A DNA stretch of 43,157 bases from Candidatus Saccharimonadota bacterium (GTDB lineage: Bacteria > Patescibacteriota > Saccharimonadia > Saccharimonadales > Saccharimonadaceae). The number at the start of each line of letters is the position of its first letter. The stretch's first letter is position 1. The stretch spans positions 1-43,157 of the forward strand of contig JAFZBS010000001.1 in NCBI GenBank assembly GCA_017561575.1. Direction: 5' to 3'. Below, in pieces: positions 33,951 to 39,640 of the stretch. Under the pieces are notes generated by a model, which was given only the letters and a program-made list of their open reading frames with translations, was not told the DNA's origin and ran no database searches. The position numbers were made by a program, and so were the translations under genes.

Positions 33951-36653
33951 TTATTCAACTGATTCGACTGCCGCTAAGGCTTCTTCCCTCATCTTTGAAT
34001 CATGAGCTTCGCCAAAGAATAATCTAAATCCTGTCATAACGGCTGCCATTGCAAGGTCATGCTCCGCTTTACAGCGTGACTGAGTAGCTGCCTCAATGTA
34101 ATCATTATACCTCTGATAGGCCGTTTCGGCAACCTCTTCGTAGTTACCAACGCTTAGGCCTTCTTTTTTGCCTTTCCTAAGTGATTCTGTAACTATCTTT
34201 CTGACTTTTTCACTCAATTCTCGCTTGAGATCGTCGAGATTCTCGCCATCTTTTGGACGCTTGTCTACATATTCTTCGATTGCGGCGCGAACTTTATCTG
34301 TGGTCTCTTGATCGGCTTCGGAGATTCTCTCGTCAAAATCGAGCTGGTTGCGGAGACCTTGCATACTGTCTACGGCGCCTAGCGTGAAACGCCTGATGAG
34401 ACCTTTACTTTTACGAGCTAGCAACTCATTAACAGTCAATTTTTCCCCGCCGACCTTTGCCGTTCGTTCATTGTTAGCAAACTCTTTGGCAATATCTTCA
34501 GAATAGGCTCTTGGGAATAGTTTGGTTCGCCAAATCCTGGTCATGAGTGATTTTTTTCTACTCCTAAAGGCTTCAACTTTACGTGCAAGTCTGTCGGCGA
34601 GCGCATTTCTGTCGCGAGTAACATCAACATCGATGGCAAGAAGAGGATTGCTGTCAATAATATCAACTTGTTTATCGAGATTACGGCGCTTTTTGCTGAG
34701 GTGTTCAACATATTCATCATCATCTATTTTGTCTTTTTCTATGTCAGCTAATTCGGTATCAATTTTAGCGAGTTCTTCATCAATTCCGGCAAGCTCGGCT
34801 TCCTTATCGGCTTTGGTTTTTTCCTCATCTTCTTTCTTTGGTTGATCGTCCGTATCTCTGAATATTTTTGACCAAGGGTCCTCTTCGTTGGCGGCACGTT
34901 TTTCCAATTCCTCAATTTGTTCTAATAGGGATTCGTCTACGTAGCGTGGGTAATTACTACTCCCAGGTTGATTTAATAATGCTAGAGTCAATTCATGTGC
35001 TTTTTCACGAATATCTTCAGAAATCTTTTCATTATCTTCTATTTTTTTAAGTCGGGCTGCTGTTTCTTTCCATTTCTTTTGTTTGGTGGAGAATTCAGCT
35101 TCGACAGCACCATTAAGATTAGCTATATCATTACGCTTTTCCAGTTCCTGGATTTTGGCTAATACATCTTCTGTTATAATGACTGGCTCGAGTAATAAGC
35201 TTTCAAGCAATTTGCTCGCGTCGTAACGTATTTCTTCGGTAGTTCGACTAAGCACTATTTTGTCTAGTCGATCCTTTGCTTCCCTCCACGCCTTTATCAT
35301 TGCTTCTTCATCTTCTGGTTTTTCTGTGGCAGAGCCCGGTTTTGGCTTGTCGCTGAATTGTTCCAAAACATCCGCAAATTCATAACCAGGCAAGACGGTT
35401 TCTTTTGATTCAGGTTTATCTTTTGATTCCTCTGCGACAGAGCCTGGTTTTGACTCAGTGGCTAATTCAGTAATCTTTTTCCCTAGATCTTCGATTTCAG
35501 CTTTTAGCTTTTCGGACTCGGATCCGATATCGTCCAGCTCTTTCTTGGTGTCAGCAAGTTCTGGACTATCTCCTTTTTGAGCAGATTCTGTAAGTGCTTC
35601 TGCAATTGGGGCCATTGGGAAGACTGGTTCAATTTCTTCACCAGCTTTGTCGCCTCTTGGGATGGCAATTTCGGCACCATCCTTGACGTTTTCCGCTATT
35701 GGCGAGATAAGGTCTTCGCTAAATGCTGTCGATTTTTTCTCAGTGTTTACTTCTGGTTTTTTGGTGAGACCGAGTAGAGCGTTTGAAATAACTTCACGAC
35801 GAAATCTGTCGTATTCTTCCTTGGTATGCTTATGACTAATCGCAAATGGGTTCTCGTAATCTTTTTTCTCATCCTCTTTTATCTGGGCCGTATCGTCTTT
35901 GATTTTTTGACGAGCCTCTTTGGAAAGTTTTGCTAAATCTTTTTTTATTGCCCTACGTACGGCTTCTTTTCTGAAGGCTTCGTATTCTTCTCTTGTATGC
36001 TTGTGGCTGATTTTGTTTGGGTTTTCATAATCTTTTTGTTCATCCCAATCTATTTGTTCAAGTTCGCCTTTGAGCCATTTTGTGGTGGCTTCTGTAACAT
36101 TCAAGCCCTCAATGCTTGCAATGGTAGTTTTTGTTATTTCTTTATCTTCTGGGGTAGAAACCTTAATTTCGATAGCATCAACGGCGGTTCCGTCTTCATT
36201 TGCCTCGGCTTTTTTCGCGGGGGACTCTTTACTGAGAGTACCTAATGCTCTCGCCATGGCGTCGCGACGAAAACCATCATATTCTTCTTTTGTATGCTTT
36301 GGTTTATCGGAATTATCTCTTTGTTCATCCCAATCAATACTGGCAAAATCGTCATTCAATCTTTTAAGGTCTTCGTCGGCAAGTGACAGTAAATCTCGTT
36401 CAACTGCTTCACGAGCAACGTCCCTTCTGATTTGTTCATACTCTTCTTCGGTATGCTTACGATCGTGTGGCCTGTTGTTGTCTTTTTGCTCGTCTTCGCT
36501 AATTTGGGCAAATCTAGCTTCGAGTCCTTTTTTTGTATCTTCAGAAAGGTTTTGTACTGCAAAATCAACAACTTTTGGATGTTGAATAAGCAAGTTTTTA
36601 ATATCTTCTTGTTCACCGTTTGTTTCTGGTGCTCTTTTTAGTGATTCGTTCAT
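33951..36653 (-). CDS. 900-residue repeat and coiled-coil protein, unknown function
   Basis: The N-terminal ~300 residues hold four imperfect repeats: a helix, then DEQKD or DEKKD, a short linker, KHT(K/R/E)EEY..FRR(E/D), and an Ala-rich helix. Copies occur near residues 30-75, 85-130, 190-245 and 245-290. The middle (300-680) is Glu/Lys-rich with long coiled coils (ELAGIDEELAKIDTELADIE). The last 200 residues form a separate, mostly helical basic domain (FRSRKKSLMTRIW, RKSKGLIRRFTLGAVDSMQG, GFRLFFGEAHDSK). No clear signal peptide or membrane helix. GGAG of the ribosome site is inside the end of the DUF5663 gene, one base upstream, so translation is coupled. A structural or scaffold role is possible. 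Confidence 0.7.
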   Translation of the reverse strand: MNESLKRAPETNGEQEDIKNLLIQHPKVVDFAVQNLSEDTKKGLEARFAQISEDEQKDNNRPHDRKHTEEEYEQIRRDVAREAVERDLLSLADEDLKRLNDDFASIDWDEQRDNSDKPKHTKEEYDGFRRDAMARALGTLSKESPAKKAEANEDGTAVDAIEIKVSTPEDKEITKTTIASIEGLNVTEATTKWLKGELEQIDWDEQKDYENPNKISHKHTREEYEAFRKEAVRRAIKKDLAKLSKEARQKIKDDTAQIKEDEKKDYENPFAISHKHTKEEYDRFRREVISNALLGLTKKPEVNTEKKSTAFSEDLISPIAENVKDGAEIAIPRGDKAGEEIEPVFPMAPIAEALTESAQKGDSPELADTKKELDDIGSESEKLKAEIEDLGKKITELATESKPGSVAEESKDKPESKETVLPGYEFADVLEQFSDKPKPGSATEKPEDEEAMIKAWREAKDRLDKIVLSRTTEEIRYDASKLLESLLLEPVIITEDVLAKIQELEKRNDIANLNGAVEAEFSTKQKKWKETAARLKKIEDNEKISEDIREKAHELTLALLNQPGSSNYPRYVDESLLEQIEELEKRAANEEDPWSKIFRDTDDQPKKEDEEKTKADKEAELAGIDEELAKIDTELADIEKDKIDDDEYVEHLSKKRRNLDKQVDIIDSNPLLAIDVDVTRDRNALADRLARKVEAFRSRKKSLMTRIWRTKLFPRAYSEDIAKEFANNERTAKVGGEKLTVNELLARKSKGLIRRFTLGAVDSMQGLRNQLDFDERISEADQETTDKVRAAIEEYVDKRPKDGENLDDLKRELSEKVRKIVTESLRKGKKEGLSVGNYEEVAETAYQRYNDYIEAATQSRCKAEHDLAMAAVMTGFRLFFGEAHDSKMREEALAAVESVE

Positions 36654-37064: not shown

Positions 37065-38126
37065 CTATTTTGCAATTGATAGTGAAATCTTGCGACCTTC
37101 TTTATCGATGTCTAGCACCTTGAAAGTTTTACGCTCATTTAGAGTGAAGATTTTCTCGGGATCAACATCAGAGCCCTCACCCAATTCTGAAACGTGCACA
37201 AGAGCTTCAACTGCTGGGCTGATTTGGACAAAGGCACCAAATGGCGTGATACGAGTAACCGTACCTTCGACTTTGCTACCTTTCTTAAGTTTGTCTACTT
37301 CGGACAGCCACGGGTCCTCGACTAGCTGTTTCATGGAGAGCGAGAGGCGCTCTTTGTCGATTGCAATAATCTTGGCCTCGATTGTTTCACCAACTTTTAC
37401 GTAGTCTGATGGGTTATTTACGCGTTCCCAGGAGATTTCTGAGATATGAACTAGGCCTTCGATGCCATCGACATTGACAAACACACCGAAGTCAACTACG
37501 CCAGTAACTACACCTTTTACAGTGTCACCAACTTTGAGCTCCGCAAACCGTTCTGCGAGCCCATCTTTGATGGCTTCTTTCTCTGAGAAGATAAGCTTGT
37601 TGTCCTTCTTGATTGCATCAAGAATTCGAACCTTGATACTCTTACCTACGAGAGAGTTGAGCCGTTGCAAAATCTCATCTTTATCAGCGCTGCCTACGCG
37701 TGGGTAATGCTCGGCTGACAACTGAGATACCGGTAAGAAACCACGAATACCTTCGTATTCAACAAGAAGTCCACCACGGTTGGCATCAAATGGAATAACT
37801 TCCACTATTTCGCCATTATCTAGCTTAGTGCTGATTTCGTCCCAGCCCTTGTCTTTAACTGCTTTTTTGAGCGACAATAGCACATAACCGTCATCCATTT
37901 CGGCTTCGATGACGGAGGCGGAAACCTCATCGCCAACATTTAAATTACGTACATAAGACGCTTCTCGACGCGGAACTAATCCGACGCCTTGATTACCGAG
38001 ATCGATTAGAATCTCGTGTTTTTTTACAGAGATAACCGTACCGTTTACGGTATCGCCTGCGATTACTTTTTTGGAATCTTCTTCCTTTAGAAGATCGTCA
38101 AAAGTTACTTTTTTGGCATTTGCCAT
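37065..38126 (-). CDS. rpsA: 30S ribosomal protein S1, four-domain form
   Basis: 353 residues with four S1 (OB-fold) RNA-binding domains starting near residues 20, 105, 195 and 280 (VNGTVISVKKHEILIDLG, VVEVIPFDANRGGLL-like, VKGVVTGVVDFGVFVNVDG, VEGTVTRITPFGAFVQISP). S1 helps the ribosome unfold and bind mRNA leaders. E. coli S1 has six domains; four is common in other phyla. AAGGAAGG lies before ATG 38126. The leader carries the palindrome CCCTTAAGGG (about 38153-38162), a possible autoregulatory site. An extended -10 (TGC TATAAT, 38186-38181) is the likely promoter. Confidence 0.93.
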   Translation of the reverse strand: MANAKKVTFDDLLKEEDSKKVIAGDTVNGTVISVKKHEILIDLGNQGVGLVPRREASYVRNLNVGDEVSASVIEAEMDDGYVLLSLKKAVKDKGWDEISTKLDNGEIVEVIPFDANRGGLLVEYEGIRGFLPVSQLSAEHYPRVGSADKDEILQRLNSLVGKSIKVRILDAIKKDNKLIFSEKEAIKDGLAERFAELKVGDTVKGVVTGVVDFGVFVNVDGIEGLVHISEISWERVNNPSDYVKVGETIEAKIIAIDKERLSLSMKQLVEDPWLSEVDKLKKGSKVEGTVTRITPFGAFVQISPAVEALVHVSELGEGSDVDPEKIFTLNERKTFKVLDIDKEGRKISLSIAK

Positions 38127-38180: not shown

Positions 38181-38206
38181 ATTATAGCAAATTTTCGTGA
38201 TATAAT
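38181..38206. promoter_or_regulatory. Back-to-back extended -10 promoters (rpsA / ROK protein)
   Basis: Minus TATAAT 38186-38181 with TGC in front; plus TATAAT 38201-38206 with TGA in front. Fourteen base pairs separate the two boxes, so each -35 area lies in the other gene's transcribed side. The plus box ends 9 nt before ATG 38216. Confidence 0.6.
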
Positions 38207-38215
38207 CAAGGTGCA

Positions 38216-38983
38216 ATGTATTTAAGTATTGATATTGGAGGTACAAAAACACTCATTGCCCTGTTTTCAAAACATGGGCGAGTGATACGTCGTTTTAAAT
38301 TTAAAACAGCGGGCTTGTATAATGATTTTGTTCGAGATTTAACGGGTGTGCTCAAAGGTTTTGTGCGCCCAAATATATTAGCTGTGACGGTGGCAATTCC
38401 GGGTGTTGTACAAAATAGTTGTTCAGTCAGATTTGGTAACCGTGATTGGGGTGATGTGGATTTATACACGCCAATAAAGGCGCTGTTTGATTGCCCAGTT
38501 TACTTTGAGAATGACGCGAATTTAGCAACAATTTACGAATCTTATCGTTTGCCGGGAAAAACTGTTTTCTTAACATTCTCAACTGGCATTGGTGGTGGCA
38601 TCGCATCTAGAGGCCGTTTATTGCCCGAATCGGATGGTTTTGAGCCTGGACACAAAATTTATTCAATTGACGGAATTAGGGCCGAATGGGAAGATATCGC
38701 GGCCGCATCAGCCTTAGAAAAACACTTCGGGATTAATTTTGCCACCGCTCTTAGGGGCACTGATAATATGAAAGAAGTAGCAAGAAGGGTTAGTTTAGGT
38801 TTGCAGGATATCGTCAGCACCTATCGTCCAGACACCATTGTTCTTGGTGGGCCGCTTGGTAAAATATTTAAGCTGTATGTAAAATATTTACCCAAGCTCG
38901 GAGTTAAGTATCGCCGACCGCGCCGACCGCTAGAGTCGGTAATCTACGGTTGTTATCTTTATTCTCGAGGCAAAATGAAATGA
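38216..38983 (+). CDS. ROK-family sugar kinase-like protein without the zinc motif
   Basis: 255 residues. ASKHA/ROK fold: phosphate-1 loop DIGGTKT, the catalytic-Asp segment VYFENDANLA, GTGIGGGIAS and the adenosine region DTIVLGGPLG. ROK kinases phosphorylate glucose, N-acetylmannosamine and related sugars. The usual CxCGxxGCxE zinc site after EPGH is missing: here EPGHKIYSIDGIRAEWEDIAA has no cysteine, and the protein is about 50 residues shorter than the family norm. It may be a kinase with altered specificity or a non-catalytic sugar sensor. Its stop overlaps the start of the HExxH gene (ATGA). Confidence 0.8.
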   Translation: MYLSIDIGGTKTLIALFSKHGRVIRRFKFKTAGLYNDFVRDLTGVLKGFVRPNILAVTVAIPGVVQNSCSVRFGNRDWGDVDLYTPIKALFDCPVYFENDANLATIYESYRLPGKTVFLTFSTGIGGGIASRGRLLPESDGFEPGHKIYSIDGIRAEWEDIAAASALEKHFGINFATALRGTDNMKEVARRVSLGLQDIVSTYRPDTIVLGGPLGKIFKLYVKYLPKLGVKYRRPRRPLESVIYGCYLYSRGKMK

Positions 38984-39372
38984 ATAATGAGGTACTAAGT
39001 AGGCTCAGGGTGGATTATCCTGAGCTACGTTTTATTGTTGGCAAAAGGGATGCCTTTCGTCCGCCGAAGACGATAATTGTTGATCCGAATGGGTCTTCCC
39101 TTTCTTTGCTACACGAAGTGGGGCATGCGCTTTGTCACCACAGAACGTTTAATACGGCCATACAAAGATTAAAAATGGAACGCGAAGCATGGGAGAAGGC
39201 ACGCGAACTATGCAGAAAATATGACGTTTTATTTGATGACGATTTTGTAGAAGATGAACTGGATAGTTACAGAAATTGGGTAGAAAAAAAATCGCGTTGC
39301 CCTGTTTGCGGACTAACGCGATTTCAATCTCTTGATGGCAATTATTATTGCCCCAGATGTGATTTAAATTAG
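38980..39372 (+). CDS. Mini HExxH metalloprotease (ImmA/IrrE-like) with C-terminal zinc ribbon
   Basis: 130 residues from ATG 38980, which overlaps the ROK stop; GAGG lies 9 nt upstream. A short N-terminal part leads to SLSLLHEVGHALCHH (HExxH zinc site), then a helix with EREAWEKA that can supply the third ligand, as in IrrE/ImmA proteases. The end is a zinc ribbon CPVCG ... CPRC. Proteases of this class cut repressors in the SOS-like, phage-induction and toxin-antitoxin responses; the target here is not known. Translational coupling to the ROK-like protein hints at a sensor-protease pair. Confidence 0.75.
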   Translation: MNNEVLSRLRVDYPELRFIVGKRDAFRPPKTIIVDPNGSSLSLLHEVGHALCHHRTFNTAIQRLKMEREAWEKARELCRKYDVLFDDDFVEDELDSYRNWVEKKSRCPVCGLTRFQSLDGNYYCPRCDLN

Positions 39373-39572
39373 GCAGCTTTTTTAGCTGGGCCACGACGAG
39401 AGATGCGACCACCCTTAGCGCCAGCGATGCGTGCTAGAGCAGGGTTAGCGGCAAAACCGCCAGTATGACCATTTTGACCACCTTTTTTACCGATACGGGC
39501 ATAAAACTCTTTTCCGTATTTGGCTTTGTTGGTAGCGGCAGCTTTCATGCCACCAGCTTTGGTTCCAGACAT
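39369..39572 (-). CDS. KGG-repeat small basic protein (stress-protein-like)
   Basis: 67 residues from ATG 39572 (GGAG 8 nt upstream; a longer frame has no ribosome site). Repeats of the KGG/GsiB type: ATNKAKYGKEFYARIGKKGG, GGFAANPALARIAGAKGG, then RRGPAKKAA. Such Gly/Lys/Ala-rich hydrophilic proteins occur in stress responses and as nucleic-acid-binding small proteins; it is a conserved item in Saccharibacteria. Promoter TTGACA-17-TATAAT with about 60 nt of leader. It overlaps the HExxH gene by 4 nt, tail to tail. Confidence 0.8.
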   Translation of the reverse strand: MSGTKAGGMKAAATNKAKYGKEFYARIGKKGGQNGHTGGFAANPALARIAGAKGGRISRRGPAKKAA

Positions 39573-39640
39573 TGTGGAAACTCCGTTCTGCCCACCACAA
39601 TTACACTGATAATACACACCTACTTAGAGGCTATGTTTCT

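What the first reader, a model, noticed from the sequence alone, without database searches (positions are those of the whole stretch)
38181..39372. Zinc-less ROK protein translationally coupled to a mini HExxH protease
The ROK-like protein keeps DIGGTKT and the catalytic Asp region but lacks the cysteine zinc motif. Its stop overlaps the ATG of a 130-residue protein with HEVGH and a CPVCG/CPRC ribbon. ImmA/IrrE-type proteases usually cut a repressor; pairing one with a sugar-kinase fold is unusual and suggests a sensor-protease module.
Basis: partly seen in the sequence, partly recalled or inferred. Interest (0 to 1): 0.65.

Follow-up and report, generated by a model that had tools for sequence, protein, structure and literature searches.

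The report
Conserved Saccharibacterial sugar-kinase/metalloprotease gene pair
Two overlapping genes, one for a sugar-kinase-type protein without the usual zinc site and one for a tiny zinc-protease-like protein, form a conserved operon across the Saccharibacteria; the protease-like gene is nearly universal there, sits beside translation genes and is kept even where the kinase is lost, so it is probably an uncharacterised core enzyme rather than a mere accessory of the kinase.

Summary
A 255-aa ROK protein (38216-38983) without the CxCGxxGC zinc motif overlaps, by ATGA, a 130-aa HExxH protein with a four-cysteine ribbon (38980-39372). The pair is conserved: 118 of 121 genome entries of the window's family with both genes mapped have them adjacent on one strand. 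It lies between rpsA/infB (often fmt/def) and a KGG gene, often beside the rRNA operon.

The small protein is the constant partner. It occurs in 131 of 139 good genomes of the family, in all 13 other genomes sampled from the class, and in three families outside it. Thirteen good genomes keep it without any ROK; only two show the reverse.

It is a gluzincin-type protein related to ImmA/IrrE (M78) proteases: HExxH-18-ExxAW in 36/36 sequences, phage metalloprotease profile in 31/36, Pfam M78 cut-off reached by some members but not by this one. It lacks the ANxFAAxLLMP block and adds LDTYRDWLH plus a ribbon, so I call it a new M78-related family. The ROK keeps its catalytic motifs; zinc-less ROK kinases are known.

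No repressor gene lies beside it. A ROK-gated sensor-protease is possible (MecR2 is a partial precedent) but not shown. Best reading: a core metalloprotease co-expressed with a sugar kinase.

The parts
38216..38983 (+). ROK-family protein, 255 aa, no zinc motif; likely sugar kinase
   Evidence: ORF; PF00480 82.9 bits over cut-off 22.9; AF2 model aligns to NanK/NagK at Z 23-25; only ROK match in the genome
38231..38251 (+). DIGGTKT phosphate/ATP-binding motif (residues 6-12)
   Evidence: read from the translation; D6, G8, T10, K11, T12 invariant in A2
38510..38515 (+). Asn99-Asp100, catalytic Asp of the ROK fold
   Evidence: invariant in the 20-sequence alignment A2; catalytic role by homology (PMC5458393)
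38967..38970 (+). GAGG, Shine-Dalgarno-like sequence 9 nt before the second start codon
   Evidence: read from the sequence; function inferred
38980..38983 (+). ATGA overlap of the ROK stop and the HExxH start (translational coupling inferred)
   Evidence: overlapping or abutting starts in relatives
38980..39372 (+). 130-aa M78-related metalloprotease-like protein with C-terminal zinc ribbon
39112..39126 (+). HEVGH metal-binding and catalytic motif (residues 45-49)
   Evidence: H45, E46, H49 invariant in 36 sequences
39178..39192 (+). EREAW (residues 67-71), predicted third metal ligand Glu67
   Evidence: HExxH-18-ExxAW in 36 of 36; matches the ExxAN position of M78
39262..39273 (+). DSYR (residues 95-98), family-specific LD[TS]YR[DEN]W motif
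   Evidence: D95, Y97, R98 invariant
39298..39360 (+). CPVC...CPRC zinc ribbon (Cys107, 110, 124, 127)
   Evidence: all four Cys invariant; PF11781 29.1 bits over cut-off 27.1
37065..38126 (-). rpsA-like S1-domain protein, divergent neighbour
   Evidence: four S1 domains; present in 51 of 61 loci
39369..39617 (-). KGG-motif protein, convergent neighbour whose stop overlaps the HExxH stop
   Evidence: PF10685 27.9 bits; present in 39 of 61 loci

Best explanation
The pair is one conserved operon made of two enzymes. The small protein is a minimal intracellular zinc metalloprotease of the gluzincin type, related to but outside the known ImmA/IrrE (M78) family. It is a core housekeeping or regulatory protease of Saccharibacteria, probably cutting one or a few specific proteins. 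His45, His49 and Glu67 would hold the metal and Glu46 would activate water; the ribbon would recognise the substrate or respond to zinc or redox state. The ROK protein is an ordinary sugar or amino-sugar kinase that does not use the structural zinc. Both are made from one transcript that diverges from rpsA. Ribosomes that finish the ROK gene reinitiate at the overlapping ATG, so the two are made together where both exist. Shown: the genes, overlap, conservation, invariant catalytic residues, sequence and fold relationship, and one-sided retention. Inferred: protease activity, kinase activity and substrate, the shared transcript and coupling, and that no physical complex is needed.
For: Catalytic residues are invariant in 36 homologues. 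phrog_87 'metallo-protease' matches 31 of 36 members, best E 1.7e-7. Pfam Peptidase_M78 matches 21 of 36, best 2.9e-5, and exceeds its cut-off in family members of G636 and G409. hhalign against 13 Saccharibacterial M78 proteins gives 88.8% probability. The AF2 model has pLDDT 88.9; IrrE is among the best structural rows (Z 4.2, 3.3 A over 73 residues) and a phage IrrE-domain protein is third in BFVD. Retained without ROK in 13 good genomes against 2 the other way. Gene order 118 of 121, with start/stop overlaps. The ROK keeps DxGxTKT, NDA, TGIG and GG and matches NanK at Z 24.9.
Against: The window protein itself scores 15.8 bits for M78, under the cut-off of 22. Fold Z values of 4-5 are weak, and the hydroxylase YfcM ties with IrrE. 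No substrate is known and no activity has been measured. The long-standing adjacency may mean a physical or regulatory link that this reading leaves out.
Confidence: 0.5

Rival explanations
1. Sensor-protease module: the ROK protein binds a sugar or sugar phosphate and, as a partner or adaptor, switches on or directs the HExxH protease against a distant regulator, in the manner of MecR2 promoting MecI proteolysis or of ImmA/IrrE cutting XRE repressors.
For: Conserved coupling over the class; homology to repressor-cutting M78 proteases; joint absence in 6 good genomes, odds ratio 27; MecR2 (4ija) is a ROK-fold protein matched at Z 23.6 that promotes repressor proteolysis (PMC3406092).
Against: The HExxH gene persists without any ROK in 13 good genomes and in sister lineages away from any ROK; no repressor is a conserved neighbour; the one conserved XRE protein, an HTH-MurA fusion, does not share its distribution. 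The joint absences may be losses or assembly gaps of one locus next to rRNA genes.
Confidence: 0.25
2. Not a protease: a metal-dependent modifying enzyme, for example a YfcM-like protein hydroxylase or another HExxH enzyme acting on the translation machinery whose genes surround it.
For: YfcM is the top structural row (Z 4.6); YfcM also carries HExxH; the neighbours are def, fmt, rbfA, infB, rpsA and rRNA genes; most family members have a basic C-terminal tail after the ribbon.
Against: hhalign to YfcM gives 2.2% against 88.8% for M78, though with one YfcM sequence against 13 M78; no EF-P domain was found in the window's genome, which is about 80% complete; the Glu ligand pattern ExxA matches M78.
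Confidence: 0.13
3. Passive neighbours: the genes sit together only because the whole rpsA-infB/rRNA region is kept in fixed order, with no functional link at all.
For: rpsA, infB and KGG genes are also kept as neighbours, so gene order in general is stable here; another gene (a tyrosine recombinase) takes the ROK's place in one sister lineage.
Against: The overlapping or abutting reading frames are kept over large sequence divergence, and the ROK is nearly always exactly upstream wherever it is present in the family.
Confidence: 0.1

Closest known systems
ImmA/IrrE-type metallopeptidases (Pfam PF06114 Peptidase_M78; phrog_87)
   Same: HExxH followed by ExxA on the next helix; small zincin; detectable profile similarity in most family members
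   Different: ExxAW instead of ExxAN; no FAAxLLMP block; extra LDTYRDWLH helix and C4 ribbon; no XRE repressor next door; core chromosomal gene in a fixed translation-gene neighbourhood
ROK-family kinases, zinc-less type (F. nucleatum NanK, 5NCK); also compared: Arthrobacter polyphosphate/ATP-glucomannokinase, 1WOQ
   Same: DxGxT, catalytic Asp and the fold (Z 22.7 to both); FnNanK also lacks the cysteine motif (PMC5458393)
   Different: Shorter (255 aa); the ExGH histidine is often Arg or Lys in relatives; operon with a metalloprotease-like gene
mecR1-mecI-mecR2 (metalloprotease sensor, repressor, ROK-fold anti-repressor)
   Same: A ROK-fold protein and a metalloprotease in one operon (PMC3406092; 4ija)
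   Different: MecR1 is a membrane sensor (own knowledge); [quoted passage not shown] a repressor gene lies in the same operon, which is absent here; MecR2 is thought to act through other cytoplasmic proteases
YfcM/EpmC EF-P hydroxylase
   Same: HExxH metal site and comparable small fold (Z 4.6)
   Different: No profile similarity; no ribbon in its sequence; works on beta-lysylated EF-P (PMC4231759)

Membership tests
Peptidase_M78 (ImmA/IrrE) | HExxH zinc motif with catalytic Glu | tested here: met
   H45, E46, H49 invariant in 36 sequences
Peptidase_M78 (ImmA/IrrE) | Third metal ligand Glu in an ExxA motif downstream | tested here: met
   HExxH-18-ExxAW in 36 of 36; [ED]xxA motif at 13-33 residues in 12 of 13 M78 proteins by the same scan. 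Ligand role inferred.
Peptidase_M78 (ImmA/IrrE) | Pfam gathering score of 22 bits | tested here: inconclusive
   Window protein 15.8 bits; relatives of the same family 28.4 and 23.5 bits
Peptidase_M78 (ImmA/IrrE) | ExxANxFAAxLLMP block | tested here: not met
   Replaced by ExxAWxxAxxL in the family
Peptidase_M78 (ImmA/IrrE) | Fold of IrrE | tested here: inconclusive
   IrrE Z 4.2, rmsd 3.3 A, 73 residues; tied with YfcM
Peptidase_M78 (ImmA/IrrE) | Neighbouring XRE repressor as substrate (ImmA/ImmR-type arrangement) | tested here: not met
   No HTH gene among the conserved neighbours
Peptidase_M78 (ImmA/IrrE) | Proteolytic activity on a repressor | not testable with these tools
   Needs biochemistry
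ROK family | Pfam PF00480 over cut-off | tested here: met
   82.9 bits against 22.9
ROK family | DxGxT and catalytic Asp | tested here: met
   Invariant in A2
ROK family | ExGH sugar-binding motif | tested here: met
   EPGH in the window protein; many relatives have EAGR or EGGR
ROK family | CxCGxxGCx(E/D) zinc motif (usual, with accepted exceptions such as FnNanK, PMC5458393) | tested here: not met
   0 of 20 family members
ROK family | ROK fold | tested here: met
   AF2 model pLDDT 81; Z 24.9 to 6jda over 252 residues, rmsd 2.7 A
SprT-like proteases | SprT domain profile | tested here: not met
   No SprT-domain hit at E up to 10; only the SprT ribbon model at E 9.1
YfcM/EpmC hydroxylase | Sequence or fold similarity to YfcM | tested here: inconclusive
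   Fold row Z 4.6 but hhalign probability 2.2%
MecR2-type ROK anti-repressor module | Repressor gene in the operon | tested here: not met
   None in the window or in the conserved neighbourhood

The most novel reading that the evidence does not exclude
A new class of sugar-gated proteolytic control: the ROK protein senses a host-derived sugar and switches a new M78-related metalloprotease, placed among the translation-initiation genes, so that an obligate episymbiont matches protein synthesis or a regulator to its host's sugar supply.
Probability: 0.15. Interest if true: 0.85.

Novelty: new variant of a known kind. Interest (0 to 1): 0.5.

Why it matters
Saccharibacteria have small genomes (roughly 0.5-1.5 Mb in the family sampled here), so a gene kept in about 94% of good genomes of a family and throughout the sampled class at one fixed place is probably important to them. 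No assigned function for it was found in the literature searches made here. A metalloprotease of a new M78-related type, joined to the only ROK gene of the genome, gives a concrete target for work in cultured Saccharibacteria, where genetics now exists (PMC10633639). It also bears on the open question of whether the ROK proteins of these bacteria are sugar kinases, which earlier work could not settle (PMC7304191).

Tried and rejected
(1) SprT-like or ribosome-linked protease: no SprT-domain match. (2) HTH-MurA fusion as a dedicated target: it occurs in many lineages without the HExxH gene and is not detected as a fusion in several lineages that have it, so co-distribution fails. (3) Link of the ROK to glycolytic PGI: PGI-like genes are present in ROK-less members of the window's genus and not found in many ROK-bearing genomes. 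(4) Viral origin: a scan of IMG/VR with the conserved motif found no relative. (5) Defence system: no meaningful PADLOC match. (6) PDB sequence search with the HExxH profile hit mostly zinc-finger and ribbon proteins and no peptidase. (7) Foldseek against the PDB gave no match under E 1. (9) The main text of the Saccharibacteria Tn-seq paper has no hit for ROK, glucokinase or protease terms; its supplementary tables could not be read here. (10) A co-folded model of the two proteins could not be made with the tools.

Full report
Observation. The window holds a ROK ORF at 38216-38983 (+), 255 aa, whose TGA overlaps the ATG of a 130-aa ORF at 38980-39372 (+) in the form ATGA. The ROK has DIGGTKT and NDAN but no cysteine zinc motif. 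The small protein has HEVGH, EREAW, DSYR and a CPVC...CPRC ribbon.

Who has it. Ten loci fetched from public genomes with the small protein all come from records titled Candidatus Saccharibacteria bacterium. In 199 genomes of the window's family, the small protein was found in 175 and the ROK in 160; among genomes at least 90% complete and at most 5% contaminated, 131 and 120 of 139. A profile search over 380 genomes of the phylum found it in all 24 genomes of the family, all 13 others of the class, and ten genomes of three families outside the class; three further matches were weak and partial. Each genome with a ROK domain has one match (60 genomes searched).

Gene order. Of 121 HExxH places whose genome also has a listed ROK place, 118 are adjacent on the same strand; the printed lists were cut, so this is a sample. 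In 61 loci read in full or part, clustering gave the order def, fmt, (rbfA), infB, rpsA, then ROK and HExxH divergently from rpsA, then a convergent KGG gene, then ORFs that look like spurious frames over the rRNA operon (identities of the neighbours by Pfam). The rRNA assignment rests on those frames and not on an RNA search. In most pairs the likely HExxH start lies 4-50 nt upstream of the ROK stop; a few abut or have a gap of up to about 23 nt. The conserved overlap is the evidence for translational coupling; coupling itself was not measured.

Which partner is constant. Thirteen good genomes keep the HExxH gene with no ROK detected anywhere, checked with the 20-sequence ROK profile. The reverse was seen in two (G046, G154), and six lack both. 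The association is strong (odds ratio 27, Fisher p 7e-5), but the genomes are related and the locus lies beside rRNA genes where assemblies break, so p is not to be taken at face value. In family f9 of the class and in the sister lineages the ROK-like genes lie elsewhere. In three sister-lineage loci a tyrosine recombinase gene takes the ROK's place. The small protein therefore has a function that does not need the ROK.

What the small protein is. In 36 aligned homologues, H45, E46, H49, E67, W71, D95, Y97, R98 and the four Cys are invariant. The spacing HExxH-18-ExxAW is the same in all 36. Thirteen Saccharibacterial M78 proteins were compared: 12 of 13 show HExxH followed 13-33 residues later by the acidic-xxA motif, usually with N after it. 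Pfam M78 matches 21 of 36 members at E up to 1 (best 2.9e-5) and passes its cut-off in members of the same family in G636 (L125, recognisable by LDTYRDWLH and the ribbon) and G409. phrog_87, metallo-protease, matches 31 of 36 (best 1.7e-7). Profile-profile comparison to the M78 set gives 88.8% over 36 columns, so it rests mainly on the HExxH helix. The AF2 model is confident (pLDDT 88.9). Its structural rows include YfcM (Z 4.6), IrrE (4.2), BlaR1, selecase and thermolysin, all low scores. The best viral models include a phage IrrE-domain protein. I conclude that it is a gluzincin-like protein related to M78. Because the ANxFAAxLLMP block and a neighbouring repressor are absent, I do not file it as a member of M78 proper.

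What the ROK is. PF00480 scores 82.9 bits. D6, G8, T10, K11, T12, N99, D100, TGIG and GG are invariant among 20 relatives. The model fits ManNAc, GlcNAc and glucose kinases at Z 20-25. The zinc motif is absent in 20 of 20. F. nucleatum NanK also lacks it and keeps the structural features of enzymatic activity (PMC5458393). Earlier work noted TIGR00744-type ROK proteins in Candidate Phyla Radiation bacteria but could not place them as glucokinases (PMC7304191). I infer an active sugar kinase of unknown substrate. Presence of a PGI-like gene did not follow presence of the ROK.

Mechanism. M78 proteases such as IrrE cut XRE repressors, and IrrE is switched on by free zinc, proposed to be released from cysteine sites (PMC7907104). 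A ribbon in the same chain could sense zinc or redox state or bind a nucleic acid or protein target; this is inference. The conserved neighbourhood is rich in translation-initiation genes, which makes a translation-linked target attractive but proves nothing. No HTH gene is a conserved neighbour. The one XRE protein that appears in nearly all genomes of the family is an HTH-MurA fusion, and its distribution over the phylum does not match that of the small protein. The sensor-protease idea has a precedent in MecR2, a ROK-fold anti-repressor encoded with the MecR1 metalloprotease (PMC3406092; 4ija at Z 23.6), but one-sided retention argues that the protease does not depend on the ROK.

Verdict. 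The pair is real and conserved, and the HExxH protein is the more interesting half: a near-universal, apparently uncharacterised, M78-related metalloprotease-like protein of Saccharibacteria with a ribbon and a private LDTYRDWLH motif. The sensor-protease module remains a minority hypothesis.

Noticed in passing
L142:909-2459 (G000:C1:6908-8458, minus strand): An XRE helix-turn-helix domain fused to the N-terminus of a MurA-like EPSP-synthase-fold enzyme (PF01381 plus PF00275). Full-length matches occur across the window's order and in several other Patescibacterial families, while elsewhere the match starts only after the HTH.
   Followed up: partly
window 39369-39617 (-), and relatives' loci (39 of 61): KGG-motif (PF10685) small protein convergent with the HExxH gene, its stop overlapping the HExxH stop; a conserved neighbour of unknown role.
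   Followed up: partly
L052:3239-3655, L054:7467-7892 and 17 other loci: Small proteins with one likely membrane span ending in an LPxTG-like signal (LPQTGP, LPETGA), encoded between rpsA and the ROK gene on the rpsA strand; no Pfam match for the one tested. Not present in the window.
   Followed up: no
L110:2200-2667, L097:7641-8216 and other loci: ORFs resembling LAGLIDADG homing endonucleases within the presumed rRNA operon next to the locus, suggesting introns in rRNA genes.
   Followed up: no
L101:6347-7177, L103:6281-7096 and L105:6347-7162: In one sister family a tyrosine recombinase (PF00589) gene sits directly upstream of the HExxH gene, where Saccharibacteria have the ROK.
   Followed up: partly
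window 33951-36653 (-): 900-aa charged protein with repeated (K)HTKEEY..FRR(D/E)A-like segments, near rpsA on the same strand; nature unknown.
   Followed up: no
G150:C1:178805-179185 and G150:C4:55463-55843: One genome of the window's genus carries two copies of the HExxH gene, one with the ROK and one without, each beside an rpsA copy and a KGG gene (L046, L047); may be a mixed assembly.
   Followed up: no
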